From the NCBI GenBank assembly GCA_014825775.1, contig MVAQ01000091.1:1-64000 (forward strand): DNA of 64,000 bases, in the 5' to 3' direction. Positions 1,008 to 64,000 of this stretch are shown here, in pieces. Origin of the DNA: Krasilnikovozyma curviuscula (Eukaryota; Basidiomycota; Tremellomycetes; Cystofilobasidiales; Mrakiaceae). A program made the translations under genes and the position numbers. How positions within the stretch are numbered: position 1 is the stretch's first letter; every line of letters starts with the position of its first letter. Below the pieces are notes generated by a model. That model saw nothing but the letters and a program-made list of their open reading frames with translations. It was not told the DNA's origin and ran no database searches.

Positions 1008-4000
1008 CTATTGAGGTAAAGCCTTTCTGTTGATCCACTGCATATAGTCTGCCGTGCCGTCCTCGTACAGCTGCGCCCTCGTCGCTCTTCTCGCGTTCTC
1101 GGATGAGTTCTTTAGCAGCGAGTCCTGATATCACCGCCAGCATCACACACACAAAGTTTTCAGTCTCAAACCACAATATAGAAGGAGAAAGAGGGAGTAA
1201 GGGACGTACGTTGACTCGAGTCACGGCGCCGCCGTGTAGGAAATGCCACCATTTCTTGAGCGAGTCGTGCAGTTTGATTTCACGAGTGCCCTTGATGTTG
1301 AGCCACTCGAGAAACTTCGTCATCTGGAACAGGACAGAACAAAATCAGCTTTCCAAATCCGATTGGAGAACAAGTCAGAAAAAAATCCAACACAGTACCT
1401 GTTCAGGATCATCATAAACGGCCCATTCGCCCGGCTTCAACACGTCCTCACTCCCCTCCTCTGCCAACCTGCGCATCGTCACCTCCTCAACCTCAACCCC
1501 AGATTTAATTCTGAGCCTCTCCAACTCCATTTCAGCCACGCCCTGCAGAAAAACTCTCCCGGTCCCAAACAACACTTTACCCCCAACTCCGAGCAACGGC
1601 GCGCTTCCCACCCCGTCAAACCACCAGACTTTATTCCCAAACCGGTCATATCCCATCGGTTTCACTCTGGGAGCATGAATCAGCTTCCTAAAGTCGCGCT
1701 CAAGCTCCTCTTCGCGCTTGGTCGCGATACGGATATCATCCTCCAGCTGGCTCCTGTGTGTGGTTGCCTTTTTCGCCTGGGCCTTAGACACTTTATCCTT
1801 CGCCCGCTGAGCACTCCTTGCCTTCTCGTCAGCGGCCTTCAGTAGTTGGTTCTGGCGGATGATTTCATGTCTCGAAGAAGGGCCGCGTGCGCCCCCTGCA
1901 AAGGGGCTGCCGAAGTTGGACGACGACGGACCGCCAGCGGTAGAGGACTCGCCGGACAGAGAGGAGGAGCCGTCGTCTGCCAGCTGATCTTCGTCGTCGA
2001 TGTCTCTCGTTGAAGGGTGGTCCACGCTCATGTTGCCGTCATCCGACATGGCGCTCGCGGATTCGAGAGCGGGCGTTGCAGAAGAGAGTGATTCTTCCTT
2101 CTTCTCTGTCTCATTAGGACCAGTAATGGCAAGTAGGTCTTCCTCCCTACAGAAAGCAGCTCACAACTCGGTTAGCAACTTAAAAGGGCCAACAAAACGG
2201 AAGTGTGCAATCATCGAAAAGGGACGTACCACTTCTTTCGATCCCTCCTGACATCTTGAATCTCCTTCCTGACCTCCGTGAGCTGTTGAGTACAGTCCTC
2301 CATGTAGTCCCTCACCAGCTTAGTCTGTACTGCGAGCTCACACAAAAAGGCGACTGTTTCGAGCTTCCAGACGGCGTCCATGAAAGCGAACCTTCCAGAG
2401 GGGTCAGCAGCGCTGAATGTCTCATCTGCATCCGCCGGGTCGACAGCCATGGTGGCCCAGCTCGGAGGTGCATCATCCGCATCTTTGAATAGAAGGTGGG
2501 CAAGAATGTCGTATATGTGTGGGAACGTCTTGATCGTTCCACGCTGGTAACAGGGATGCGAGAAGTCAGGATGGTTTCACTCGAGGTCCGAAAGAAAAAG
2601 TTCACTGCTCACCTCTATCAGACATCCCACAAGTCTAGCTTCCCAGCCTTCACGACCGTCTTTGACCGACAGCTCTCCTTTATATTGCCAGTTATCACCA
2701 ACCTTGATACCAGCTCTGATGCAGTTATCAGCCTTGATACCATCTTTTCCTTCCCATAAATCTGTCTCATCCGGTTCTTCTTCAACCGACAGCTCGCTAC
2801 TGTCCTCTGGCGCGTCTGGATCAAGCGGGTCGAGCTTCTTGACGGCGCCGTAGCTCGCGAGCGGCCGCACAAAATTAGATGGGTGGTCTTCAATGATGGC
2901 GTTCAGGAGCGTCGCACAGATTTCGTTCATGAGCGTGCAGTTCATCTTGGTTTGGAGAGCGGATTCGTAGTCGTCGAAAGAGAAAAGGGAGAGGACAAGC
3001 GGATCACTGTACCACAGAAATCATGAGTTAGAGCTGGAGGACGCAACCCCAAGACAAATACAAATAAAGGAACTTACCCAAGAGTTGTCAGACAACTCCA
3101 AGTTGACAAGAAGATTTCGAAGAGTTCGCCAAAGGGAAGCAGCTTTGACGGTCGTGGACGTTCGAGTATCTTTCCCATCTTGAGTTCTCTGGCAGAGTAT
3201 TCAACCAGTAAATCTTTTAAGGAATATTTCAAGAACAAAACAATCAGTGCCAAGACCAACTGTTAAAGGGATTGCAAATTACCTTCAGCAGGGTATTTGA
3301 CAGGCTTTTTCCTCTTGGGCGCGGGCGTTTCCGGTTTCTTCTCTTCGGCTGGCAGGATGATGCCAGATTCTTGAAGCTCCTTTTGTCGAATCAGCTCCTC
3401 CTCTACAAGAACCAGAAGGATAGTTGCGTTAATTCCAATGATATTTGTCAGAAAATGCAGAGGCTCGAGTGAGACTTGCCTTTCTCAATCGCAATTCTCG
3501 CCTTCTTCGCACCTTTCGTCTCCTCGTCACCTTCCTTCCATCCACTCGCTTTCTTTCTCTTATCCAGTTTGTCCTTCTTCACATTTGCAATCCCCTTCAT
3601 GACATCACCAGTGATCTGAGTTGGGATTCCGTACTTTTCAGCAAGAGGCTTCTTGACGATCCACGGTGACGCAGTTGCGGATTCTCGATCGACGCAGTCT
3701 CTGAGGAAACGACGGAGGATCGATTTTGAGAACGACATTCTATCACGACTAGAAACATGTGGAGGAAGTTTAGAAACGCAAAGCAGATGAAAGTGCAGAG
3801 AACTAGATCTCACCTCAAAACATCGCAGTGAACCTCCATAAAACTGCCACTCCACTTCTCGCCACTCTCACCAGGAATACTAACTCCGCCTTGAATTGCA
3901 CTCGGAACGAAATCCTCCCCCATGATCTGAGCAGTCGCACCCGAATCAATAAGTTGGACGTTATAGATGTACTTGTTCGGGTCATCCATCGCATCTGCTT

Positions 4001-47898: not shown

Positions 47899-49309
47899 AT
47901 GTCCACCTCAATTCTTGCCAGATCCTTCAGATCCTCAGCCGCTTTAAAAGTTGTTGCTGGAAGTAGGAACGCTCACACCGTTCCAGCTCTCAAGTTTGGG
48001 TGAATAGATATTTCAGTCTCCAACGGATTTCTTAATCAGCTTTTTTTCTGACGTACTTATCTTCGTACTGCTGTTGTATAGCTATGAAGCTCTGGAGCCA
48101 CATATGTGAGTCAATACCCTCGTGGTGGTGGTCACGATGGAGCAGAAAGAATGGTAAATCTGATGCATTTTTCGCTGGGCCTGATTGGTGGATCAAATAG
48201 CTCGAAGGAGATTATGACTCTTCATCACACCAAGCACCACCAGACATACGTTACCGGTGAGTAAACTCCTCAAGGCTCTTTGGAGCAGCGAACTGGACTG
48301 GATAGAAGGGTGAGATAAGGATGATGGCAGGTGACGCAGGCGTGAGATTTGCAGCAGCCATCTATGGCAATGCATCTCTGAGCTCAAACACCAGATTGGA
48401 GTTTTATAAGAGGGTTTGTCATTTGTTGTGTTAGGCTATACCAGGTCTTGCGATGGTGCAGGAGAAAGCGGCTCTCATAACTCAAGTACTCACGTTCTCA
48501 CGCTGTCGAATCATTCCCTCCAGGCCTCAACGCTGCTGAAGAATCTTACGCCGCTGCCGCCGCCAAGGGAGACATCAAGGCCATCATCGGTCTCCAAAAT
48601 GCTCTCAAATTCAATGGAGGAGGTAAGCATGCTCTTTTTACAATTCAGTTTGGGTCGTCTAGCCCCCCTTCGTCAGACTTTGACGTTTATTTACGTGTTG
48701 TTCTGAAAGGGCACATCAACCACACACTCTTCTGGGCTAACCTCACTCCAGCATCCTCTCCATCTGCGACTCTCAAGGACGGTCCTTTGAAGTCTGCTTT
48801 GGAGTCGACTTTCGGTTCCGTCGAGGAGTTCAAGACCAAGATGAATGCTCAAACTGCTGCCATTCAAGGTTCCGGATGGGGATGGCTCGTAGGTTAAATT
48901 TGTAACTTATCTGTAAACTGTATCTAAGACCGACACCTCCTTGATTTGAATGGTTCTAGGGCTACAACAAGGGTACCAAGTCTCTCGAAATCATCACCAC
49001 CGCCAACCAAGACCCTCTCCTCTCTGCTGTCCCAATCATCGGTATTGATATCTGGGAGCACGCTTTCTATCTCGACTACAAGAACGTCAAGCCAGATTAC
49101 TGTGAGTCTTGCGCGTCGATCTGCTTTACGTCTGCGTCCCAGGATCATTCTGATGTTTCGCTGTATCAAATCTGACAAAACAGTGAAAGCAATTTGGAAC
49201 GTTATCAACGTAAGTGATGTTTCCTTCCATCGCCCTTTTTGTCAATCACTGATATCCTTCTATCGTTCAGTGGGAGGAAGCTGAAGCTCGTTTCGCTGCC
49301 GCTCAGTAA
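47899..49309 (+). CDS. SOD2: mitochondrial manganese superoxide dismutase
   Basis: Many short exons. The ATG at 47899 gives [18 protein letters not shown], a mitochondrial presequence. The mature protein starts [17 protein letters not shown]. Metal ligands are visible: the first His in the N-terminal helix ([14 protein letters not shown]), the second in NHTLFWANL, and Asp and His in [13 protein letters not shown]. Other family marks are [25 protein letters not shown] and [17 protein letters not shown]. The residues fit the Mn/Fe family, with the Gly and Gln pattern of the Mn type. It removes superoxide in the mitochondrial matrix. The gene ends towards the Zn2Cys6 factor, which lies on the opposite strand. 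Confidence 0.95.
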
Positions 49310-49541: not shown

Positions 49542-52500
49542 TCACCATGTCTGATTGCCATTCCTACCCAACAGTAGATATGCGAGGGAGTCATCAGAAA
49601 ATGATGTCTCTCCGAAGGTCTGATAGAGGTCCAGAGCAGGCATGTTGGATTGACTTTCACTTTCATTGCCTGAGAAAGATAATGCACTAGAGCTGCTATT
49701 ACTGGCAGAAAAGAGTGGTTGCTGTTGTTGTTGTTGTTGCTGTTGTTGGAGTTGGGGAGGTGGAAATTGGTCGCGTTGTCGGTAGAAGGCAGAAGGTGAA
49801 GCTGAGTGGGCGAGTTGATATATGTTGTGGTTCAGAGAGGACTGGAAATGAGGAAAGTGCTGTTGACTAGGGAATTGCGTCATTGATGAGCTGCCTGCGT
49901 TTACGGACTGATGAGATGGTGCGTACTGGTGAAGACTTGTTGCGCTACTAGGGCCAGCAGATTGAGATCTCGAATTTAAATCTCCACTAACTATGGCGGG
50001 TGGGGATTTTGAAGTAGTTGTACTTGTGTGTGCAGGTTTTGGAGAGGGTTGACTGTTTCGTGCTGACTTTAGTTGAAGATCTCGCCTCGTTGAACCGAAC
50101 GCGACCAGTTCCAGCCATGCTTCATCTGAAAGAGTTGTAGCACTCTCATCCTGAGTCAGCCTCAAGGTTACAGGAAGGACCTCGACGCGCTTGCGAGGAA
50201 CCATCCGCACCCAAGTGATTGGGAAAGGAGCATGGGGGAGAGGAGGGATGGAAAGCCTGATGTGGAACCCAGTTGCCATTTCTCGGAGCAACGCAGCAGC
50301 TCGAAGCGCTGCTGGATATGTTTTGCTGGCTTGCTGGAGGAGAGATATGGTGATCTCGAGATCGGAAATCCCAGCGGAAGAAAATGCTAAGCAGGACGTG
50401 AAATCTTGGTCAGCGCTGGTGCCTTGATAAAGCGACGGAAGAGAAAATTACCTGAGTATAGCGCCATGACTGACAGAAAAGTATGTCCTGAGAAGGTGAG
50501 ATGATTGATGTGGATGGAACCAAAGTACGGAGTGAGACCAAGAACTTCAAGTCTGGCATAAGTTTGGACGATGGTCGCGGCAGCTTCCTTTGCCCTGAGT
50601 CCGATGTCAGAGAGCTGCTGTTCATCTTTCTTTTTTCCCTTTCCCGCTTCTTTTGTTTTGTTTCTATCTTTGTATTCGATGACCAGACGCTCTCGCGCTA
50701 TGAGCGCTCGAACGTAGCTGCTGTCGATTACCAATCGCATTGCTTGGATGATAGTCTGTCGATCTTCAGGGATGGACTCCTTATCCAAGTTCGCAGGAAC
50801 CTTCAGACATGGTGGAAGATGTTCCAGCCAGTCATCTATGAGTCCATCAGCCCTGTCCAAAATCGCGACTCGGCGAGGAGTCTCATCGTCTCGAAAGACC
50901 GAGTAGAGGAAGTTGGTGGTCGACGGTTCAGAATAATCCGGCCGGTGCCCGGGTGAGTTACAGGCGAATAACACCTGCTCTAGGATGGCATTCATTTGAG
51001 TTGCTGCATTGGAACTCAAGATAAGAATGTTAGGGCTCGAGGAAGATGTGATAGTGTCAGATGATATTGAGGTGTCGTCGACGGGAACCGGCAGCTCGAT
51101 GTCGCATTCAGAAAGTCGCAATAGCGCTGGTCGGCCGATTGATGAAGCTGAAGCTCTAAGTAAGTAACAACGGAACTAGTGAGAGACCTGCAGATAGGAT
51201 GGGGAAAGCGAAAAACCCTCGCTCAGCAACTTACTTGTCGAGCTAGCAAACGAACGGAAAGGTTAAATTGTCAATTCACAAGAAGCCTTAGATATGCCCT
51301 AAAACACTTACAGCATAGATAGCAAAGAAGGTGCGTTTCCGAGTTTCCTTCACAACATGGTCAAACTCCCAGAATTCCGATGTCCGCCTATGCATACCAG
51401 TTCTGGACAAAGATGGGGCTCAATCAGAGTGGTATCTCAAGCTTAACTCATAAATGAACTCACGTCAGAGCGATAGCCACCGCTTCGGCAATATGACGAC
51501 CACTGGCCTTCCCGAGACCCTCAGAGAACAGTGCCATGTAATAGGATGCCTTACAACAAAGGTTACGAGGCGGATCTCAGCGTCGTTTTGAGTTTCGTAC
51601 CGAGTAAGAAAAAACTCCACCTGTATATAATGAAGATTCAACCTGTTTTCACTCATCCCGGAGAGCTGCTTCGCCATCTGAAAGTAAGCTAAACCACTGC
51701 TTCTTGTGTCGCCTGGAGCAGGAAAACCCTCGCGTCGTCAATAATTCTGGAGTTCACAGCTGCAATGCCCATCAGTAACGCCCCGAATTGAGGGGACATT
51801 GGGTGTCTGTCTAATGTATTGATAGTAGTCTTCAAATAAAGCTAGAGTCGAAGCCCCAGAACTCTGGTCAACGGGTGGCATATCTGTCTGGAAAGAGAGG
51901 GGCGACTGACCTGTAGAAAGGTAGGATGATGCAGTATCGGACGGATTGCTTCAGTCATAGACAGATGAGTTCTGACTATCCGGTTTAGCAGGTCGATTGG
52001 GCAAACACTGAGAACTAGTGGTTGGACATCTTCTGTGCCTTCCGACCCAACACTCGCTTGAGCAGGAGAGCCATCTGCCGAGTCTGCTTCTTCTGGTTTG
52101 ATACTCATACTGGACGTTTGGTAAACATGTGCATCGGAGACACGATTACTGTTGAGGTCGCTGTTGATGGAGGGGCTACCGTTGTTGTTGTTTGTGTGAG
52201 ACCAGGTTGACTCATGGCCTGTGCTTGGTGGATGTTGAGGACCAGAGGGGCTGACGGAGATACTGTTACGATTGAGACCACCAAGCTGTTCAATCAGAGG
52301 GAGTCCAGAAGTTGAACCTGAGAGGATGATTTGCCCATCAGGATCGAGGTACAACGAGCTTTGAAGGTGTCGATTGGCGAGGACCTCCATCGCGGCTTCC
52401 TGTATGAAGAAAATCTCTCAGTAATGGATCGGAGACCTTGTTCTGACAACCGGGCGACCGACAGATAAATTCTCCAACCCGCTGCCACCGGGTGAGCTCG

Positions 52501-52913
52501 ACACTCTACGCCGTTTTTTGCTGGGCTCACTGATTCATGAAACCCAAACATAGGAGTGTATCAGCATTCAACTTGTATTACTGATAGTTTTGTGGGAGAA
52601 CATTTCATACCTATCTGTTCCACACTCCAGCCCAGCTTTGCAGCATTTTTCGCATGGTCTCTTGTCTTCGCATCGTATTTTTCTCCTGGTGATCCAGCGC
52701 CCAGATCAGTAGAGACAATGCTATAATGATTGTGAGGATTGCTTACCTTCTGCAGTGATTGCAAGCTGTCGGGCGATAAAACGATCAGTGATGAAACAGC
52801 GGAGGGCTAAAATGCCATTGTTCACCAAGCTGCTAGCAGCCAGACGCACCTTCCCTGACCTGCTCTTTGGGTGGCTTCCGACTATCTGGAGCAACAGAAG
52901 TCTCTTTCTGCAT
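49542..52913 (-). CDS. Zn2Cys6 fungal transcription factor
   Basis: Spliced gene. The start at 52913 reads MQKETSVAPDSRKPPKEQVR. Exons 1-3 join into the binuclear zinc cluster CNHCRRRKIRCEDKRPCEKC, then CKAGLEC: Cys spacing C-x2-C-x6-C-x5-C-x2-C-x6-C is canonical, preceded by REA and with basic residues for CGG contact. A Ser/Asn-rich linker, the VLANRHLQSSLYLDPDGQ segment and a fungal-specific regulatory domain follow (FPIDLL-like VCPIDLLNRIVRTHLSMTEA; GRPALLRLSECDIELPVPVD, typical of that domain). The C-terminal part is Gln/Ser-rich with ten consecutive Gln and ends LLLGRNGNQTW. It probably binds CGG-type repeats in the nucleus. It lies tail-to-tail with SOD2 and is followed at its 5' side by the permease on the same strand. 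Confidence 0.9.
49719..49748 (-). repeat. poly-glutamine coding repeat
   Basis: Ten consecutive CAA/CAG codons (minus strand) inside the C-terminal region of the Zn2Cys6 factor. Mixed CAA and CAG make pure slippage less likely. Gln-rich stretches are common in activation domains. Confidence 0.9.
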
Positions 52914-53385
52914 TGCCTACAATGGTTGGTTGGATATTATTAGCGAATATTGTGGTTATTCCATTTGCGGAGAACAGCGCGATAAGAAGACCGTTACTTG
53001 TGGCAACTGAACGGAGACAGAAATTGTCAGAAAAGTCGCTTACAGCAACACGGGAAAGTTAAGAAGATGATTCTATGTCGTTTGGGAGATATCCGAGACT
53101 GCGAGGGTTGACAGGAAGAGTAGCGCGATGTTATCCTGCTCTTGCCACAAAATAGGAGGGAACCATCGCCTCTAGGGCAAATAACAACAAAAAGAATATT
53201 GGAAAAAGAATTTCATATATGAAAAGCCGTATACAACCGGAGAACCACTACAAAAGGGTAAGAAATATAAAAGGATCACACCGCAGTGCGAACCAGGTTG
53301 ATCATCCTAGCAATTGCTGAAAACCCACGAGCAGGATAACACCACAAGTAGGAACACATCAATAAAGGAGCATTTTAAAAACGCA
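52914..53385. promoter_or_regulatory. promoter region of the Zn2Cys6 factor
   Basis: 472 bases between the factor's start and the end of the permease, which is on the same strand. No gene is recognised. One near-copy of the CGGAGG element (CCGGAGA, 53237-53243) is present, so autoregulation is possible but unproven. Confidence 0.4.
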
Positions 53386-55875
53386 CTACCACATCCAGTT
53401 GAGGAATCTATGAAAAAAGCGGAACAACGTTAGTTTAATTGAAAGCTCCAGAGATCTAAACAGAGCGACACACCTCTCGTATCTCGTTTCAGGTTTCTTG
53501 AGGTCGAGCGACGCCTCATGAGCAACCACCTCTTCCAGGCCAGTAGTGATGTCCATCTCCTCGAGCTTGACCCATTTGCTTTTCTTGACGACCTTCCAGA
53601 ATATGAAGACGAAAGCGTACAACATGAGACCAAAGTAAGCGGTGAAGAAGTCGGAAATGTTCCAGTGTCTAGGATAGAGAAAATTAAACGTTTCAATACG
53701 GTACCCAAGGTTTCTGGAAGGAAATTGACTAACCCTTTGATGACTGATACAGCGGCGAAAGTGATAGAAACCCACGATAAATGTCAGTGAGGACTGACTA
53801 ACCATATCAATTGTTCACGAAGAACTTACAAACAGCGTAGCCATTTGTGAAGAGGATCAAGAAGATTCCTCCTCCCCCGATGATAGCAGTGTAAGGGTAA
53901 AACTTGGCTAAGAAGGGCATCTCGTCTAGGTTTTTACCTTGAACCACCAGAGCTTTACGGAATCGCCACTGAGCAAAGCCTGTGATCACATTAATAGAAA
54001 GGTCAGCGATGATTTTAAGCCCGTCGGGTGAGATATCTTACAGATATTGATATATGCAAGCATATTAGCCGTTGCTCCAAGGTTGATCAGCCAGTTCAAC
54101 ACGGTGGTCGCTGAGTTGCTGACGGCAAGATAGGCAAGAAGAGGTCCACAGTGAACAAAGATGAGCGCGAAGAGAGGCACACCATGTTTGGTAGTGTACG
54201 CTAGGAATTTGGGAGCTCGACCGTTCAAAGCTAATCCGTGCAAAGTTCTCGAGCCGGTAAACATCATCGAGTTACAGGATGACCAGGCACTGGTGATGAC
54301 GATGGCGTTGATGAGGTTTGGAAGGAACGGAATCTTGAAATTATTGATGGCGACTGTCAGAAAGAAAGGATCAGTTCCACATGTGTTTCAGTAGTTTGGT
54401 AGTTTGGATAACGTACCAACAAATGGTGAAGCAGCAACACCCTTTCCAGTGAGCCTAGCAGCAATCAAAGCAGCAGAGTTGGATGGAACCAAAACACCGA
54501 TGGCCAAAGTTGACAGGACGAAAAAGATAGTGAGACGCCAGATGACTCTACCCACAGCTTTAGGTACTACTCTTCTTGGGTTGACGGCTTCAGGAGCACA
54601 GACTGAGATGATTTCAGGCCCAGAAATGGCGAAGGAAGCAAAGACAAAGCAACTCCAAAAAGCGCAGAATCTTCCCAGCGCACCGGTAGTGTACTGCTCG
54701 TTGAAAGCGCCAGGATCTGTGATAAGAAAAACTAGTCAGTTGTTGAATAGATGATATGATGAGGCTCCAGCTTACTTCGCCAATACCTGAAGCCAATTCG
54801 ATCGTGTTGCGGATTTCCTCCCAAGAAAGTCACAAACGTGAAGATCAGGAATCCAGCGATGAGGAATATTTTTACGATTGCAAAGTTGAACTCTGCGGCT
54901 CCGAAGAATCTGACAGCACAGCAGTTGAGCGCGAAGATGCCGACAACGGTGATGGTGACCCAGACGGCAGCTGAAGATATTAAGGTCGTCAGCTGTCGCT
55001 CAACCTGCTTGCCGCACCTGTTCAAAACTCACGGCTGATATCTGGAAACCAATACGCCCATAGCGATACAAGACTTAATGAAACGAAGTGTTGATTAGGT
55101 TAGTGCATGGCAACAAACAGCAAGCGACCGGTTCTCACTCACGCAGAAGTATCAGCCGCACAATTCATCATCATTGAGTAGACATAAGCCCATCCGACAG
55201 CACATCCAGCAGCGTCGTCGACGAATCTTGAAACGTCTATTTTAAACCCCACTTAAATAAGTGCTCGTAAACCACAAAAACAGAAAGATGAGATGTACTC
55301 ACGAGTTCCAAAGGCACCAGGAACAGGAAGGTAAGATGACATTTCACCAGCACATTGACCGACACACCAGAGGAGAGCGCACCTGGACATATTGCATCAG
55401 AAGGGATGAATTTCAGTCAGTGAGGAGTGCAGAACTAAACGCAGGTTAAGAAGTGATATACCAGATAGTATAGGATATGAACATTGAGCCAGGACCGGCC
55501 ATGATCAGAGCCCCTCCAGAACCAACGAATAACCCAACACCTGCAAGGTCAACAGTCAGCAACCGAATTGTTCAAAACCGCAAATGTCTCTCCATCCTTA
55601 CCGATGACACCCCCTACGAGACGACAAACAGAGTTAGAGTTGAGATCCGATTGTTTTGATTTTACAATGATCGACAACCACTTACCGATGGACAACAAGG
55701 CGATATGGTGACTCTGAAGACCCCTGTGCACGTCGGTGGGTCGACCATGATGGTCAGAGTCAGAGGAAACCTCTTCGACATTGTAAGTAGCATCGTTCTT
55801 TGATCCTGAGAAAAGGGATCCTTCCTTGGTACCAGCTGGTGAGTGCTCGAGCACCGTAGCTTCTACAGAGGACAT
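53386..55875 (-). CDS. amino-acid permease (AAT/YAT family)
   Basis: Intron-rich gene. The ATG at 55875 gives MSSVEATVLEHSPAGTKE; a hydrophilic cytosolic N-terminus precedes the first span (HHIALLSIG, then across introns GLFVGSGGALIMAGPGSM). The Gly/Ala-rich first span (GSGGAL) is the substrate-binding signature of this transporter superfamily. Later segments include CVGQCAGEMSSYLPVPGAF, VGWAYVYSMMMNCAADTS, FASFAISGPEIISVCAPEAV, SWSCNSMMFTGSRTLHGLAL, GVPLFALIFVHCGPLLAYLA and FLILFTNGYAV, about twelve spans in all. The C-terminus is cytosolic and ends, after a last short intron, with ERFLNWMW. Plasma-membrane proton-coupled uptake of amino acids or related amines is the family role; the exact substrate cannot be read from the sequence. 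It shares a promoter with the BVMO gene. Confidence 0.87.
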
Positions 55876-55967
55876 GGCAAAAAAAAAACACGGAAGGGAG
55901 AAGGGAGCAGAAGAAGAAAGGCGATGTCAAGCTGGGACTTGATACATTCTTGCTCCTTCCCGTTGGA

Positions 55968-55976
55968 CTTTATATC
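55968..55976 (-). promoter_or_regulatory. TATA-like box of the permease
   Basis: GATATAAAG on the minus strand, about 93 bases upstream of the permease ATG. Distance and sequence fit a TATA element; no functional evidence. Confidence 0.4.
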
Positions 55977-56050
55977 ATAAGAGATGTGAACGGGAGAGAT
56001 GGAAGTCCTAGACACACTGATAAGGGTACCCCGATGAATTCCCTACCTCT

Positions 56051-56056
56051 CGGAGG
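56051..56056 (+). promoter_or_regulatory. CGGAGG element 1
   Basis: A CGGAGG hexamer in the divergent promoter, same word as the arms of the inverted repeat at 56216-56233. Candidate Zn2Cys6 half-site. Confidence 0.35.
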
Positions 56057-56215
56057 ATGGCCACTGTGGCGTCCAACCCAGACTCCGTTGGGCTCCGTTC
56101 AAGAGTCCGTGACGGGATTGTCTTTTTCGGAAGCAAATGCGTTGTTCAGGTAATATGCAAGAGCATTTGCACTTGAATTTTGTGACAACGGAGATGGCAG
56201 AGGAGATAGGGGCGG

Positions 56216-56233
56216 CCTCCGAAAGTACGGAGG
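56216..56233. promoter_or_regulatory. inverted repeat CCTCCG-N6-CGGAGG
   Basis: A perfect 6-base inverted repeat with a six-base spacer (AAAGTA). Its inner triplets form CCG-N6-CGG, a spacing class used by dimeric Zn2Cys6 proteins. It is 303-286 bases upstream of the BVMO start and about 340 bases from the permease start. A Zn2Cys6 gene lies in the same cluster, so it is a candidate operator. Confidence 0.5.
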
Positions 56234-56271
56234 TGTGAAAGCGACCCGTCAGTGGTATATACATCGCCGAC

Positions 56272-56277
56272 CGGAGG
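56272..56277 (+). promoter_or_regulatory. CGGAGG element 3
   Basis: A further CGGAGG hexamer about 40 bases from the inverted repeat, within GCCGACCGGAGG, which also includes a CCGACCGG-like palindromic core. Confidence 0.35.
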
Positions 56278-56392
56278 CAGTCCCAAAATACTTAGGCTAT
56301 CTATCAGCAACGGAGAGTGGCCCGTTAGGAATAAATCTTTCAATGATAGGACGGGATAGCTGCTAGGAAAACGGAAGGCGCTGCGATGGGAA

Positions 56393-56416
56393 CCTACGCG
56401 ATTGCGATCGCGTGGG
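56393..56416. promoter_or_regulatory. inverted repeat with CGCG arms
   Basis: Nine-base arms CCTACGCGA and TCGCGTGGG (one mismatch in the pairing) around the spacer TTGCGA, about 100 bases upstream of the BVMO ATG. Position just upstream of the TATA-like box suggests a second factor site; the factor is unknown. Confidence 0.4.
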
Positions 56417-56433
56417 TGGGACTACAACAATAC

Positions 56434-56440
56434 TTATAAG
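56434..56440 (+). promoter_or_regulatory. TATA-like box of the BVMO gene
   Basis: TTATAAG, about 80 bases upstream of the BVMO ATG, a usual distance in fungi. Confidence 0.4.
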
Positions 56441-56518
56441 AGATTCCAACACCTAGAGCAAGAAAGATACTAACTATCACTTGGTTTTCTTATACCGATT
56501 TCTCTCTCCTTTCCCACA

Positions 56519-59082
56519 ATGCCTGTAGCTATCCCACAAGTTATCAAGGAAACTACCTCTTCTATCACCAATGGATTGAAGGCCGCTCCTGTTGCAGCTT
56601 CATCCCCCCCTAATTCAGCTCCAGAGCCCAGCACTACGCCATACTCCGTATGGCAACAGCCTATGGGTACCAAGCGTACTGCGTAAGTCACTCTCCTGGT
56701 GTTTGTCTGCTCAAGAGGTTTGTTGACATTTCTTACTTCCGGCTTTTTAAAGCAAAATCATCATTGTCGGTGCAGGTGTTTCAGGAGTGACCATGGTTCA
56801 GAGACTCAAGAAGTTCATGACTGATGTTGAGTATGTCGTTTATGAAAAGAATGAGGACGTTGGTGGAACTTGGTGAGCATACTTCTCTCACATGCGTCAA
56901 GCGGCAGCTTTCTCCTTTTGTTGCGCAAAATCTGACTTTTATGTCTCTCAGGTTGGAGAATAAGTACCCTGGATGTCGATGTGATGTACCATCTGTTACC
57001 TATCAGTGAGTCCAAAATGTAGTTACGGATTGCGCGAGGCTAAAACTAACTTCAAGTAACACATAATCTCGCGCTGTTTAGATTCTCGTGGGCTCCCAAC
57101 GAATCCTGGCCCCAGTTTGTGAGTTTGAATTAACTTGATGAGGGTGTGAAGGACAAGCTATTGACTGTCTCGGGCCCACTGTTTTTCCATCATCAGTACT
57201 CCAATGCTCCAGAGATTTTAAAATACTTCAAGCGTGTCTGTACAGAGCATCAGCTGCTGGACAAAGTGAAGCTCCAACATCAGGTCATCGGAACCACCTG
57301 GAACTCGGAGACCTCAAAGTGGCAGGTTAAGGTGCAGAACGTTGCCACCGGAGTAGTATTCGACGACGAGTGTGACTTCTTTGTCAGTGGAACCGGTATC
57401 TTAAAGTAAGCCTCGATTATCTGTATCTGTATCGTTGCTCTTTCATCTACTGATGTTTGTACTCCCTTTTTGTCTCTACCAGCAACTGGAAATGGCCCAA
57501 CATCCCTTCTCTCGACTCCTACAAAGGCACCCTGGTTCACACTGCTCGCTGGCCCGAATCGATCGATCTTGCTGGAAAGAAAGTCGGTGTCATTGGTGTT
57601 GGATCCTCCTCTGTCCAGATCATTCCGCAAATTCAACCTATCGTCGAGACATTGACCACCTTCATCCGGTCTCCAACTTGGATCACTCCCAACTTCGGAG
57701 CCAAGTACGCTGGTCCTAAAGGCTCAAACTTCTACTACACTGAAGATCAGCACAAGGAGTTCCAAGATTACGAAAAGTACTTAGACTACAGGAAGAAGGT
57801 GGAGCAGGAGCTTTCTTACCGATACAAATGGGTCCGTTCATCTCGTGGTTTCGTTCTAATCCTAATCTTACGCTGATTTATCTCTTTTTCGTTCCCACAA
57901 GGCTCTCAAAGATTCCCCGGAACAGGCTGAAGCGGCAGCGTCTGCCAAAGCTGAGATGATCGAAAAGCTTAAAGGTAAAGACGAGCTTATCTCCAAGCTC
58001 ATCCCAACATTTGCCGTTGGATGTCGTAGACCAACAGTAAGTTTGCATTTCAAAAGTATCTGCTCTAGTCCTATTGGCTCAGTCAATTCCGCTCTCGTCG
58101 CGTCTTCCGTTTTGTTGCAGCCTGGAAACGGCTTCTTGGAAGCACTTCAGAAGGACAATGTCGTTACGTGTATGAGTCCAATTACTCATGCTACCGAGAA
58201 GGGTCTCATGACGTCCGACGGCGTCGAACATGAAATTGACGTGTTGATCGCTGCTACGTAAGTTTACTCCCTTATCTGAACTGCTTAGTGAAGTTGACAA
58301 CTCTTAATTCTTGAAATGACAGTGGATTCGACAACTCTTTTGCTCCTCGTTTCCCAGTTATCGGTCATGAAGGCAAGAACTTGCAGGATCTGTGGGCAGA
58401 TGGAAAGGCCGAAAGCTATATGTCCATCATGACGTCTGGTTTCCCCAACTACCTCATCTTTTCGGGACCGTCCTACCCAGCTGGACATGGATCTGTTATG
58501 CCAGTCATTGAGCTGCTGGCAAATTACTTCTGCAAGGTGAGTAACCTTCACTGATGGTCATACCTCACGTTAACTCAGCCTTGCTGTTCTTATAGATGAT
58601 ATACAAGTGGCAGGTGGAACCTAATCTCCGTTCAATTGAGCCATCAAGGGAAGCTCAGGATGAGTTCAACATCCATCGTAACGAACAGCTCAAGACAACC
58701 TGCTGGGCATCTCAGTGAGCTTTCTGTGATTTCTCGAACAACCTTCAAAACTGATCATAAGCTCTACTCCGCAGCTGTTCTTCCTGGTTCAAGAATGGTA
58801 AGCCCGACGGACCTTTGATTGCGATGCACCCAGGGTCAAGAACACATTTCTTCTTGCTGCTCAAGAACCCAAGGTTAGTCTCCCCTCCTTGTTTACCCAT
58901 CGCTTGTCCGATCTGAATCGGGACTTTTTTTTCAAAGATGGCAAGACTACGTCTTCAAGTATGAAGGGAACCGTTACACCTTTTCTGGAATGGGTTTCAC
59001 AACTAAAGAGACAGAGGGCGGCGACTTGACTTGGTACTTGAACAAGGAGGATGATCACAACAACCTTATGCTTGAGATCTGA
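56519..59082 (+). CDS. type I Baeyer-Villiger monooxygenase (flavin-dependent)
   Basis: About a dozen exons. The ATG at 56519 reads MPVAIPQVIKETTSSITNG. The FAD-binding GxGxxG is in KIIIVGAGVSGVTM, followed by VVYEKNEDVGGTW and, across an intron, LENKYPGCRCDVPSVTYQ. GGTW...YPG...D is the second fingerprint of type I enzymes. The diagnostic motif F/Y-x-G-x3-H-x3-W is present as YKGTLVHTARW (57520-57552), directly before the NADPH-binding VGVIGVGSSSVQIIP. Later parts are IRSPTWITPNFGAKY, FAVGCRRPTPGNGFLEAL, ATGFDNSFAPRFPVIG, SGFPNYLIFSGPSYPAGHGS and MHPGSR. The enzyme inserts oxygen next to a ketone using NADPH and O2, forming an ester or lactone. The substrate is not known. The gene is divergent from the permease and directly upstream of an esterase. 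Confidence 0.92.
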
Positions 59083-59552
59083 TAGGATCCGGCTGCATTT
59101 TAGACGACAATTCTCGTTGTGTTCTTTGTCCTTTTTCCTTTTTTTTTTTAACTTCAATTGTATTTCGTCTTGTATCTGTGTATCTGATCTCATTGAATCT
59201 CAGTGTGCGACAACTGTCGCTGCACACTTCTTCGGCTTGCTAGGTATATATGTATTATATGTCAACGTATCTTATCTGCCAAAGCTCTCGTCATAAACCA
59301 ACTTTACTCAACTTAATTTGAAGCTCAGAAAAGTAATAAGCAACTCCAAATTTCTGGACGTGGCTCTAATTTCCAGCAGGAGTCGAGGTGCTCCAAACGA
59401 TCAAATCCGTTCTAATTCTCGAAATATTCCTAAAACCCGATACCCTTCACATTCAAGTCTTTAAACTCTCACTTCATTTCAAATCACCTAGATTGTGCTT
59501 TAAGACTCATAACTCTTGATAGCAGCTGGAAAGGAGAGGCGACCAGAAATCC
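59083..59552. other. intergenic between BVMO and hydrolase
   Basis: 470 bases between two plus-strand genes; T-rich 3' sequence of the BVMO gene, then the hydrolase promoter. I saw no CGGAGG copy here, so coregulation through that element is not obvious for the hydrolase. Confidence 0.5.
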
Positions 59553-62034
59553 ATGGCTATTGAACTGGTCGACCACTATGTCCTCGCTGAGCAGAAGTAT
59601 GCCTACGATCAACCGCCTGTACCTCCTGAATTGATAGAAGGTATGCTCTTTTATGCATTCAGCGCCTGGATGAGCGACAGTACTGACACTGAGCTGCAGC
59701 CAACCGCCTGGCCCAAACCAAGGATAGAAACCCTCTGCTCAAGATTCAACCATTCAAAGTGAGTAGCCTGCCTTCAGTACTCTGTATTCTGGTTCTGATC
59801 ACCTTCCAGCTTCTGTATATCATTTATGTTCTCCTAAGCACCCTTTTGATGTAAGCGAACTACCATTTCAGCGTCATCCTTCTGTCCAGATCATTTGACC
59901 GGATAAACCTGTTTCTTATCACTTCATCTTATTGGGTTCTGCAGTTCAATACCATTCTGGGCCATCTATTACTTCCCTGAGAAGAACAGACAAAGACAGG
60001 GCTGGCGTACGTATTCCACGTTCAGAAACGAGCCGTTATCAGCAGGCGGGTCATTCAGCTGATACGCCTTCTTTCTCTTTGCAGCGTTGACTCGTTGCCT
60101 CAGAATCAGTGCAATGAGAAGGTTACAAGGTGTTGTTGCTAGATGGTGCGTCTTACACCGTGCACTGAAATCTCCAGCGATAGGCTGGCTGAGGTTGCTT
60201 ACCTCTCATGTTGCTTTACTTTCCTTTTCAGCGAAATCGATCACCTTGGAAGAGATCTTTCATTTGAACCAGTGTGTACCTTCGTTTCTTTGTTTTCCTT
60301 GATACTGTTATCAAATGACCAGGCTCACTTTGCCCAATCGAACGGAACGTCGTAATAACACCTTGTTCCTTCTCACCACTCCGTGTTTCGCTGTCGCAGC
60401 CACCAGAATCCTTACTCGAATCGCACCACACGTGGATCCCGCCGGCACCAGAAACACTTATCGCCGGGTTTGTCCTGTCATCAGCTCATTCAGTCGAATC
60501 TGCCCGTGGGTCCTGGAAGCCATTCCATTCCTCGTCGCCGAAGACCCCAGTAAAAATGAACGGGTCCGTTCCCAGAGGCAAACGACGCAGATGGAAACAT
60601 GGGATCTTGCCATGGGAGAACAGAGATGCTGGAGTGAGAGTTGCGCCTGTGGCTGGGTTCTGGTATCAGGGAAAGAAGATGTATCCTGAACAGAAGTTCA
60701 AGCCGATTGACCGTAAGAAGAACGAACTAGTTGGGTTGTTCTTCCATGGTGAGTCCTGAGTCCTCACAGACCTCTTCCGTTATTTTAGACTCTCAATCAA
60801 TTTTGATTTGCTTCAGGTGGTGCATACTTGGCCGGGTCTGCTCTCGAAACTGACGGCACCGCTCGAATACCGAAATCCCTAATCGCCAGTACCAAGATCA
60901 AGCACGTCCTTAGCGTCGACTATCGAATTAGCCACTGTAATCCTTTCCCAAGCTGCTTGTTGGATGCGATTTCAGCCTATTATTACTTGCTTCAGTTCAC
61001 CGAGCCTGAGAACATCATCTTCTTCGGTGACAGGTTCGCAATTTTTGCTCTCTTCACGTTGAAGCGATTTCTGACTTGAGTATTCTATTGAAATTAGTGC
61101 TGGGGGAAATCTGGCGTTAGGTTTGATGCGTTACATCCGCGATGAAGGTTTCCAGCTTGGGTTGCCCAAGCCTGGTGGACTCGTTGTCTTCTCTCCATGG
61201 TGTGACATGTCGTTCTCCCACCATGTCCTACCAGGCTCATCATCATTTCTTAATAAGAAGTCAGGCGAGTCACTATTTTATTTTGTGATTCAAGGAAGGC
61301 TTTGCTCTGACAGTTGCTCGCTTCACCAGACATCATTCACGACAACTTACCCCCTCACTCAGTTTCTCTTTTCTTGCGTGGTTCACCTACACAGATCATG
61401 AATTCTCCATACCTCTCTCCAGCAGCTCTTAGTTTACCCAAGACAGTACATCAGTTCGAAGGGTTCCCGAAGACTTTCATAGTCGCTGGGGAATCTGAGA
61501 GGATGACGGATGAGATCAGAGACTTGGTTCAGAGAGTAGAGCTGGGGATCGGGAAGGAGAACGTAGAGTATCTTGAAGTTTACGGAGCGTGAGCGACTTC
61601 CCTTGTTGCTCTCCACCACATCGATTCGCTGACCTGCGTCGTTCTTAGTCCACACGACTTTGTCATCTTCCCCTGGATGGCAGACGAACGACGTCTCGTC
61701 TTCTCTCAACTAGATAACTGGCTTGCTGATAACTTTGAAATTGCTCATCACAAGAAGTCGAAACCATCACCATTCTTGCCTCCGGCAAAGGACGAAGAAG
61801 GTCTCCTCGAGACAGCGTTCGATTTGGGTTCGGCTGGTTTGGAAATGTTCGACTCTTCGTACTTCTTGGGTGCGGCCAACTCGAGTGAAAATTTGGTTCA
61901 TCAGAGTGAGTAGCTCATTTCTCATTTTTGACTCCTCAATCTGATCATCGCTTTGTGTAATCTTCCTAGGTGAACCGTCCGACGGCTGGGGTCAAGGCGG
62001 TGAATGGGAGTGGTCTGATGACGACGACGAATGA
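59553..62034 (+). CDS. HSL-type alpha/beta hydrolase (esterase/lipase)
   Basis: Many exons. The ATG at 59553 gives MAIELVDHYVLAEQKYAYDQ. After N-terminal family segments (IPFWAIYYFPEKNRQRQGW; LTRCLRISAMRRLQGVVAR) and VAPVAGFWYQGKKMYPEQKF come the catalytic motifs. FFHGGAYLAGSALE, spliced across an intron, contains the oxyanion HGG. SVDYRISHCNPFPSCLLDA is followed by FFGDS joined to AGGNLALGL (nucleophile Ser in GDSAGG). AGESERMTDEIRDL carries the likely acid and PHDFVIFPWMADER the likely His. A hydrophilic tail ends DGWGQGGEWEWSDDDDE. The hormone-sensitive-lipase family hydrolyses small esters. It lies just behind the BVMO gene on the same strand and could hydrolyse its ester or lactone product; that is inference. 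Confidence 0.87.
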
Positions 62035-62595: not shown

Positions 62596-64000
62596 ATGGG
62601 TAGAATTCAGTCAGTGTGTACCTGCTGCTTTTTCGCTCTCTGGTAGCTAACAATAAATCACGACCCTTCCTCTTTATGCAGACGTTTTAGAAGCGCAGTT
62701 TTACCACTCTTGCCTTCCCAGTACCCAATAACATCTGGCTTTGAGAAGATCCATATCGCTGGCTGCTGGAGTAGAGCTTCAGCAGCCCGATTCATCAAGG
62801 TCCTTCTGGTCCTGCTGTTTACAATCCTCTTGTTCCTTCACGCAGGATTACCACCTTTCCCACCGTCTTACTCTCGTGAATGGAATACAGAGCTGAGTTT
62901 GGGTAGAGAATGGAAAAAGGGGGAGGTCAGGATGGTGTCTTTCGAGCATTGGTGAGTTGAGTTTGTCACCATGGAAATAAATGTGCTCTCTAAACTTTGC
63001 CTCGATACCTTTTTTTGACAGCAAAAGAAACGGGTTTAACAGTGGGTACTCTAAAGAGATGAACTGTTGTCTGTATTTATATATTTCTTGGCTTTATTGC
63101 TCTAGATCAGCTAATGCCGCATCTGGTTCAACATCAGCTCTCTATCGAAACCAACTTCAGCTATGCTTTCCAACCTTACATTTGGAGAACGTCAATATCA
63201 GCAGTTGTGTCACTTTACTTCTCTTGGCCAATGCGATCTGCGGTCATTCCTCTTACCGCCTACCTTTCTCATCCGTCGAGGCAGCTCGAGCCCATCGTCC
63301 ACCACACACCTCACGCCATATCTCTAAAACGGTACTCCCAGCTTTGCCCTATCAAAGATCGATACGTTATCGGTATTGAGAATCCCTGGTTCCGGGAAGA
63401 TCGCTGGCTTCGAGAACGTCAACAGCAGCACATAACCAAAGGTCCAAAAGCGATGTTGAAGTTGATGGAAACCTACGATGGGAAGGAACGCTACCAGATC
63501 ATACGAGAAGCTCTGTTGCACGTTCCTCAGGACGAATACTGTGTGGAAATACGAGGAGAGAGCTTTGATTTCCAAACTAACACGCTCAGTTTGTACCCGG
63601 AGATACTAGACTACTTCAGTCTCAAGTTCTTCAGGTGGAGCGCTAGGATCGAGGAAGTAGTGGAACGAGCTGTGAAGTTGATGACCAATAAAAGTGGGAA
63701 GCTTCGAGCAATGTCCTTCGACTACGAGTCGTTTACGCCCCCGTTGATGGAGGACGTTCTTGGTGAGCGACCTTTTGTATTGGTTTCTTCACAACGATGT
63801 GGTTAACGCCAACCTTCTAGCGATTCATGTCCGACTGGACGACTTCCCAGCCCATTGCATCAATCTTGCTGATTGGAACGCTAGATACAACACCTGGAAT
63901 CAACTCGACGTGCTCCCTGATCGTTTTCCAGCAGACATACCTTGGGATGACACGCGCCATCAACGATACCTCGAGCACTGCAGTCCCTCTATCCAACGAA
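62596..64000 (+). CDS. type II membrane O-fucosyltransferase-like protein (partial, runs off the window)
   Basis: A short first exon is proposed (MGRIQ at 62596), joined by an intron with a good CTAAC branch site to RFRSAVLPLLPSQYPITSGF. One membrane span follows (FIKVLLVLLFTILLFLHAGL), giving a type II Golgi topology. The luminal part has the basidiomycete layout of this family: FNSGYQLMPHLVQHQLSIET, FSYAFQPYIW, PMRSAVIPLTAYLSHPSRQL, HAISLKRYSQLCP and, after an intron, AIHVRLDDFPAHC, the first donor-binding-type motif (HVR-x-D-F). Such proteins resemble GDP-fucose O-fucosyltransferases (PF10250-like), but their real donor and acceptor in fungi are mostly unknown. The 3' end lies beyond position 64000. 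The start exon is uncertain. Confidence 0.68.

What the first reader, a model, noticed from the sequence alone, without database searches (positions are those of the whole stretch)
49542..62034. Candidate metabolic cluster: Zn2Cys6 factor, permease, Baeyer-Villiger monooxygenase, esterase
Four neighbours have roles that fit together. A pathway-type transcription factor, a plasma-membrane permease, a type I BVMO with the diagnostic YKGTLVHTARW motif and a GDSAGG/HGG hydrolase follow each other without housekeeping genes between them. A BVMO makes an ester or lactone from a ketone and an HSL-type esterase can open it, a known catabolic pair in bacteria and some fungi. An amino-acid-type permease in the same group suggests a nitrogen-containing or amino-acid-derived ketone. 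The motifs are seen; the pathway is inferred.
Basis: partly seen in the sequence, partly recalled or inferred. Interest (0 to 1): 0.75.

Follow-up and report, generated by a model that had tools for sequence, protein, structure and literature searches.

The report
Yeast ketone-oxidising enzyme gene neighbourhood
In a basidiomycete yeast, a gene for a Baeyer-Villiger-type (ketone-to-ester) enzyme shares one promoter region with an amino-acid transporter gene and lies beside a regulator and an esterase; the genes are real, but a joint four-gene pathway is not shown and the esterase looks like a bystander.

Summary
All four genes are there. Spliced models give a Zn2Cys6/Fungal_trans regulator (49542-52913, minus; one frame break I could not splice), an amino acid permease (53386-55875, minus, 559 aa), a Baeyer-Villiger-type flavoprotein monooxygenase (56519-59082, plus, 593 aa) and a membrane-anchored alpha/beta hydrolase (59553-62034, plus, 554 aa). 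Two corrections. First, YKGTLVHTARWP breaks the strict BVMO fingerprint at position 1 (Y for F); the other BVMO motif is intact. Second, the hydrolase is an Abhydrolase_3/Say1_Mug180 protein with an N-terminal hydrophobic segment; 3 of its named basidiomycete relatives are called 'endoplasmic reticulum protein'. In Cutaneotrichosporon sp. HIS471 the nearest relatives of hydrolase and BVMO carry different tags and lie on contigs of different length, which indicates that the pair is not linked there. The best-supported unit is the divergent permease/BVMO pair with one 643-bp promoter, next to the regulator; the esterase is probably a neighbour. BVMO-then-esterase chemistry is already described in Tremellomycetes (zearalenone, 2-dodecanone). 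Verdict: real genes, plausible small catabolic module, pathway, co-regulation and substrate unproven, ordinary interest.

The parts
49542..52913 (-). Zn2Cys6 regulator with Fungal_trans domain; five exons 52850-52913, 52747-52765, 52611-52685, 52463-52529, 51911-52399, a sixth from 51841 downwards; second part 51621-51713 (open frame from 51737), 51464-51549, 51312-51402, 51235-51242, 50452-51155, 49542-50386; frame break between about 51737 and 51691
   Evidence: Models; PF00172 E 2.5e-7 and PF04082 E 2e-16; in order on P0241 and P0242
51691..51737 (-). stretch in which the regulator's reading frame changes; no joining intron found by hand
53386..55875 (-). amino acid permease, 559 aa, 13 exons, frame intact
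   Evidence: Model; PF00324 E 8.2e-117; best NCBIfam model TIGR00913 at 464.6 bits, below its cut-off of 578.7
55876..56518 (.). shared divergent promoter of permease and monooxygenase, 643 bp; 23 CGG/CCG, 4 CGGAGG/CCTCCG
56216..56233 (.). everted repeat CCTCCG-N6-CGGAGG, the only exact copy found in the 22.4-Mb assembly; candidate Zn2Cys6 site (inference)
56519..59082 (+). Baeyer-Villiger-type flavoprotein monooxygenase, 593 aa, 12 exons, frame intact
   Evidence: Model; PF00743; phmmer to CHMO structures; motifs
59553..62034 (+). membrane-anchored Say1/Mug180-like alpha/beta hydrolase, 554 aa, 12 exons; GDSAGG with Ser306, His450, HGGA at 233; hydrophobic segment about residues 45-74
   Evidence: Model; PF07859, PF10340; relatives; hydropathy

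Best explanation
A small, probably inducible ketone-oxidation module made of the divergent permease/BVMO pair, with the Zn2Cys6 gene beside it as the likely local regulator; the hydrolase is most likely an unrelated resident gene. Mechanism: an unidentified inducer (a ketone or its precursor) activates a Zn2Cys6 factor that binds CGG-type sites in the 55876-56518 promoter and raises both genes (inferred); the permease imports an amino acid or amino-acid-like compound (family level only); the soluble FAD/NADPH enzyme inserts one oxygen beside a ketone carbonyl and gives an ester or lactone (inferred from family and motifs); the ester is then cut by an esterase, which could be the neighbour or another of the genome's Abhydrolase_3 proteins. 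Shown: gene structures, families, motifs, the shared intergenic region. Indicated: non-linkage of the BVMO and hydrolase relatives in one species. Inferred: co-regulation, substrate, direction of flux.
For: Divergent arrangement with one 643-bp intergenic region; 23 CGG/CCG there, a count reached by 12 of 2584 windows of that length (at least 4 of the 12 overlap the stretch itself); four CGGAGG/CCTCCG against a shuffle mean of 0.46 (2 of 1000 shuffles reach four); no CGGAGG in the regulator's or the hydrolase's upstream region. BVMO with GAGVSG, GVGSSS, GGTWLENKYPGCRCD and GCRRPTPG; the last lies where cyclohexanone monooxygenases have xKRP, the catalytic arginine region as I recall it; the GxGxxS form of the NADP motif is also reported for MoxY, an assayed fungal BVMO (PMC6315744, passages). 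A second BVMO of the same genome (about C376:41193-43517) shares a 509-bp divergent intergenic region with a transporter-like gene and has a Zn_clus match at C376:48041-48166. Hydrolase and BVMO relatives apart in Cutaneotrichosporon sp. HIS471.
Against: CGG content is not above dinucleotide shuffles of the same stretch (23 against mean 19.0; 141 of 1000 reach it), nor are its short palindromes (3 against 1.07; P 0.131), and CGGAGG was picked after looking. A stretch near window 1351-2193 has a higher CGG count (24-25). One copy of the palindrome is about what chance gives in 22.4 Mb (my estimate, about 1), and the C376 intergenic region has no CGGAGG and no such palindrome. No expression data. 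No relative's gene order was seen for regulator, permease and BVMO. The regulator's frame is broken in this assembly. Hydrolase and BVMO are tandem, 470 bp apart, which is compatible with a functional link.
Confidence: 0.45

Rival explanations
1. One reading: regulator, permease, BVMO and hydrolase act in one pathway. A refined form: the BVMO turns a methyl ketone into an acetate ester, and the Say1-like hydrolase, an acetyl-ester hydrolase type, splits off acetate.
For: Adjacency and same strand of BVMO and hydrolase. BVMO then esterase is a known sequence in Tremellomycetes: Apiotrichum mycotoxinivorans oxidises zearalenone and then cuts the new ester (PMC7416605, abstract and passages); Trichosporon asahii forms decyl acetate from dodecan-2-one (PMC4192553, passages). 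MoxY converts C8-C12 2-alkanones (PMC6315744, passages); EstA cuts the acetate in the same pathway (PMC3509697, passages). Say1 removes acetate from sterols (PMC4076087, passages).
Against: Nearest relatives on contigs of different length in Cutaneotrichosporon sp. HIS471. The hydrolase's listed relatives include Kwoniella and several Agaricomycetes, none of which appears by name among the 120 listed BVMO hits (whether those species lack such a BVMO was not tested). Hydrolase has a hydrophobic N-terminal segment, BVMO none. No CGGAGG upstream of the hydrolase.
Confidence: 0.2
2. Chance adjacency: four independently regulated genes next to housekeeping genes, with no shared pathway.
For: The families are common in this genome: 51 Zn_clus matches, some two to a gene; 13 further AA_permease loci by my grouping of 47 matches; 21 Abhydrolase_3 matches that I group into 19 loci, 16 over the cut-off; two further clear BVMOs. 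These counts miss genes split by introns. A reader who accepts any regulator, transporter, oxygenase and hydrolase will find such quartets by chance (not computed here). Hydrolase and BVMO relatives apart in one species.
Against: Divergent permease/BVMO arrangement with CGGAGG repeats; a second transporter-like/BVMO divergent pair in the same genome.
Confidence: 0.25
3. The enzyme is not a Baeyer-Villiger monooxygenase in function but an N- or S-oxidising flavoprotein monooxygenase that acts on an amino-acid-derived compound brought in by the permease.
For: The fingerprint starts with Y instead of F; the sister Mycena proteins (5 of 5) have YxGxxxHxxxYP, and 4 of those 5 also fail the other BVMO motif. 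H-x3-Y/F is the form of N-oxidising FMOs as I recall it. Amino acid permease next door.
Against: The top-ranked solved structures are cyclohexanone, steroid and phenylacetone monooxygenases and 'putative flavin-binding monooxygenases'; enzymes named flavin-containing monooxygenase appear only from E 7e-13 to 1.6e-13 and weaker. The window protein keeps the W and GGxWxxxxYPGxxxD.
Confidence: 0.1

Closest known systems
Cyclohexanone/phenylacetone monooxygenases (type I BVMO, PDB 6era, 5m0z, 1w4x)
   Same: Two Rossmann motifs, GGxWxxxxYPGxxxD, KRP/RRP region, similarity over residues 56-264 and 320-518
   Different: Y instead of F in the fingerprint, N-terminal extension of about 45 residues, residues 265-319 not aligned in the best match
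MoxY/StcW, fungal BVMO of aflatoxin and sterigmatocystin pathways, with esterase EstA/StcI
   Same: Fungal BVMO with GxGxxS NADP motif; BVMO makes an acetate ester that an esterase cuts (passages)
   Different: No polyketide gene seen among the genes tested here; hydrolase here is of the Say1 type; pathway unknown. The MoxY, StcW and EstA sequences were not compared
Zearalenone oxidation and hydrolysis in Apiotrichum mycotoxinivorans
   Same: BVMO followed by carboxylesterase in a Tremellomycete (passages of PMC7416605)
   Different: The enzymes there are predictions, C1_1820 (BVMO) and C2_44, C3_70, C5_1043 (hydrolases); the passages read describe no cluster of them
Say1 steryl deacetylase (S. 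cerevisiae) / Mug180
   Same: PF10340 over cut-off, N-terminal hydrophobic segment, Abhydrolase_3 motifs
   Different: General Abhydrolase_3 scores higher; substrate untested; C-terminal tail of about 80 residues; HGGA where five of six aligned relatives have HGGG. The Say1 sequence itself was not compared

Membership tests
Type I Baeyer-Villiger monooxygenase | Fingerprint FxGxxxHxxxW[P/D] | tested here: not met
   YKGTLVHTARWP at 208: only position 1 deviates; 47 of the 120 listed homologs also fail the strict form. I therefore call it BVMO-type, not a strict member
Type I Baeyer-Villiger monooxygenase | [A/G]GxWxxxx[F/Y]P[G/M]xxxD | tested here: met
   GGTWLENKYPGCRCD at 92; 113 of 120 listed homologs have it
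Type I Baeyer-Villiger monooxygenase | Two Rossmann dinucleotide motifs | tested here: met
   GAGVSG at 61; GVGSSS at 233, the GxGxxS variant also reported for MoxY
Type I Baeyer-Villiger monooxygenase | Conversion of a ketone to an ester or lactone | not testable with these tools
   needs enzyme assay
Say1/Mug180 steryl acetyl hydrolase | PF10340 over curated cut-off | tested here: met
   39.8 bits, cut-off 21; PF07859 scores higher (91.1)
Say1/Mug180 steryl acetyl hydrolase | Single N-terminal transmembrane segment | tested here: met
   one hydrophobic stretch about 45-74 (19-residue Kyte-Doolittle windows starting 45-56); also in 5 of 6 relatives tested (not P0128); hydropathy only, no topology test
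Say1/Mug180 steryl acetyl hydrolase | Steryl acetate hydrolysis | not testable with these tools
   needs assay
Fungal metabolic gene cluster | Gene order kept in relatives | tested here: inconclusive
   BVMO and hydrolase relatives on contigs of different length in Cutaneotrichosporon sp. HIS471; regulator and permease could not be placed; no fungal genome collection is held
Fungal metabolic gene cluster | Co-regulation | not testable with these tools
   no expression data; promoter motif evidence weak

The most novel reading that the evidence does not exclude
Basidiomycete yeasts use BVMOs for catabolism of nitrogen-containing or amino-acid-derived ketones: in this genome each of the three BVMOs found of this group has a nitrogen-compound gene nearby (here an amino acid permease; at C376 hydantoinase/oxoprolinase genes, a transporter-like gene, a Zn2Cys6 gene and a class I/II aminotransferase; at C193 a class V aminotransferase), and the window locus is one such inducible permease/BVMO switch, with the Say1-like hydrolase removing acetate from a methyl-ketone-derived ester.
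Probability: 0.15. Interest if true: 0.5.

Novelty: new member of a known kind. Interest (0 to 1): 0.25.

Why it matters
If the module is real it would give a gene-level entry to ketone catabolism in Tremellomycetes, where BVMO-then-esterase chemistry is described but the genes were only predicted in the one genome paper looked at here (passages of PMC7416605). The BVMO belongs to a basidiomycete branch (sister to Mycena proteins, 58% identity) and could be assayed directly. As it stands it is one more neighbourhood of common metabolic genes.

Tried and rejected
Whole four-gene cluster as first described: not adopted, because the hydrolase is a membrane-anchored type with relatives across basidiomycetes and its relative appears unlinked to the BVMO relative in Cutaneotrichosporon sp. 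HIS471. Recent duplication as origin of the BVMO: rejected; the two other BVMOs of this group fall elsewhere in a tree of 123 rows (C193 with Stereum, C376 with a group that holds ascomycete yeasts and moulds; quick method). Recent bacterial transfer: not supported; 11 introns and named fungal nearest kin. CCTCCG-N6-CGGAGG as a regulon marker: of no use, one exact copy in the genome; the looser TCCG-N6-CGGAGG has 21 matches, its reversed control 29. CGG density: high against other windows, not against shuffles. First exon choice for the regulator's sixth exon replaced by a 69-bp intron at 51842-51910 that gives a longer match. Paper searches: BVMO + Cryptococcus, 18 papers, none on this gene by its title; MoxY + versicolorone + esterase + Baeyer-Villiger, none; basidiomycete/gene cluster/permease/Baeyer-Villiger, 15 of 60 listed. 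No search was made for a published description of this very locus beyond these.

Full report
What is there. The window is the first 64,000 bases of a 75,836-base contig (C378) of a 22.4-Mb genome in 387 contigs. I built exon models by hand from GT-AG introns (one GC-AG in the hydrolase). Permease, monooxygenase and hydrolase give uninterrupted proteins of 559, 593 and 554 residues. The regulator gives a Zn2Cys6 part and a Fungal_trans part whose frames do not meet between about 51737 and 51691; both parts align in order to the same two proteins. I leave open whether that is an assembly error or a lesion.

Families. Pfam confirms all four. On the left lie an eIF2B-type subunit and a Fe/Mn superoxide dismutase; on the right a gene without a Pfam match in the two pieces tested.

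The monooxygenase. phmmer against solved structures ranks cyclohexanone monooxygenases first (E 2.5e-60). Of two published BVMO motifs, one is exact and one deviates at its first position. 5133 proteins matched among the 7997 candidates scored; the 120 listed begin with Mycena (58% identity), then Vanrija (52%); two Cutaneotrichosporon proteins are at 46%. In a tree of 123 rows (quick method, SH-aLRT) the window protein is sister to five Mycena proteins (support 100), next to the Vanrija/Cutaneotrichosporon proteins (support 80). No closer named tremellomycete protein is in that listing, so the gene looks patchily distributed. The genome holds at least two more of this group, at C193 and C376, on other branches.

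The hydrolase. It hits Abhydrolase_3 and, over cut-off, Say1_Mug180. Its best relatives are three Kwoniella and one Cutaneotrichosporon protein of 449-662 aa at 35-40% identity; further down are seven named Agaricomycete proteins, most of 349-407 aa; three of these eleven are named 'endoplasmic reticulum protein'. In an alignment of 7 sequences the GDSAGG motif, the late histidine and parts of the N-terminal region are shared; a hydrophobic segment there is found in the window protein and in 5 of 6 relatives tested. Say1 of S. cerevisiae is an ER and lipid-droplet sterol deacetylase with one transmembrane domain (PMC4076087, passages). That makes an acetyl-ester hydrolase a reasonable guess and a soluble lactonase less so.

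Linkage in a relative. The Cutaneotrichosporon sp. HIS471 hydrolase relative P0123 carries tag CspHIS471_0409230 on a contig of 3,136,557 bases; the BVMO relative P0069 carries CspHIS471_0201090 on a contig of 3,375,374 bases (hydrolase pair 40% identity over 454 columns). Different tag series and contig lengths indicate that they are not neighbours there. Orthology is likely but not proven, the database clusters proteins at 90% identity, and no gene order was seen directly.

Promoters. Permease and BVMO start 643 bases apart on opposite strands. This stretch has 23 CGG/CCG and four CGGAGG/CCTCCG, two of them forming CCTCCG-N6-CGGAGG. Among windows of equal length 12 of 2584 reach that CGG count, at least four of them overlapping the stretch itself, and a stretch near window 1351-2193 is denser. 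Against dinucleotide shuffles the CGG count is not unusual (141 of 1000) nor are the short palindromes (P 0.131), while four CGGAGG is (2 of 1000), with the motif chosen after looking. The palindrome is unique in the genome, its reversed control absent. The regulator's and hydrolase's upstream regions have no CGGAGG. This is a hint of joint control of permease and BVMO, no more.

How common are the parts. The genome shows 51 Zn_clus matches, some two to a gene, 13 further amino-acid-permease loci (my grouping) and 19 Abhydrolase_3 loci, 16 over cut-off (my grouping), counts that miss genes split by introns (the window's own members are absent). Adjacent regulator, transporter, oxygenase and hydrolase genes can be expected by chance somewhere when any member of those classes is accepted; I did not compute how often.

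The other BVMO loci. At C376 the BVMO has hydantoinase/5-oxoprolinase pieces on one side and on the other a transporter-like gene (509 bp divergent; MFS by eye, PF07690 only at E 0.099), a Zn_clus match with a Fungal_trans piece just under its cut-off, and a class I/II aminotransferase. At C193 a class V aminotransferase piece lies about 1 kb from the BVMO. This is the base of the novel reading.

Known chemistry. A BVMO followed by an esterase is described for zearalenone in Apiotrichum mycotoxinivorans (PMC7416605), for dodecan-2-one in yeasts including Trichosporon asahii, where decyl acetate was found (PMC4192553), and in aflatoxin synthesis (PMC6315744; PMC3509697); of each I read passages. 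The idea is sound; this locus does not yet show it.

Conclusion.

Noticed in passing
G000:C376:35331-51999 (L024, L025): A second BVMO (about C376:41193-43517, minus) is divergently paired (509 bp) with a transporter-like gene (MFS by eye; PF07690 only at E 0.099, below cut-off) and flanked by hydantoinase/5-oxoprolinase pieces (PF02538, PF01968, PF05378), a Zn_clus match (48041-48166) with a Fungal_trans piece just below cut-off, and a class I/II aminotransferase (51277-51999): a better-looking catabolic cluster than the one given.
   Followed up: partly
G000:C193:7431-11312 (L022, L023): A third BVMO, grouped with Stereum proteins, lies about 1 kb from a class V aminotransferase piece (PF00266, E 8.6e-8).
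   Followed up: partly
window 51691-51737: Frame break inside the Zn2Cys6 regulator that no intron I could find explains.
   Followed up: partly
window 62647-63803: Gene right of the hydrolase with a hydrophobic N-terminal stretch (by eye); no Pfam match in the two pieces tested.
   Followed up: no
G000:C155:611-14456 (L028, L029): An FMO-family match (PF00743, C155:611-793) and an Abhydrolase_3 gene related to the window's hydrolase (C155:13550-14456) lie about 13 kb apart.
   Followed up: no
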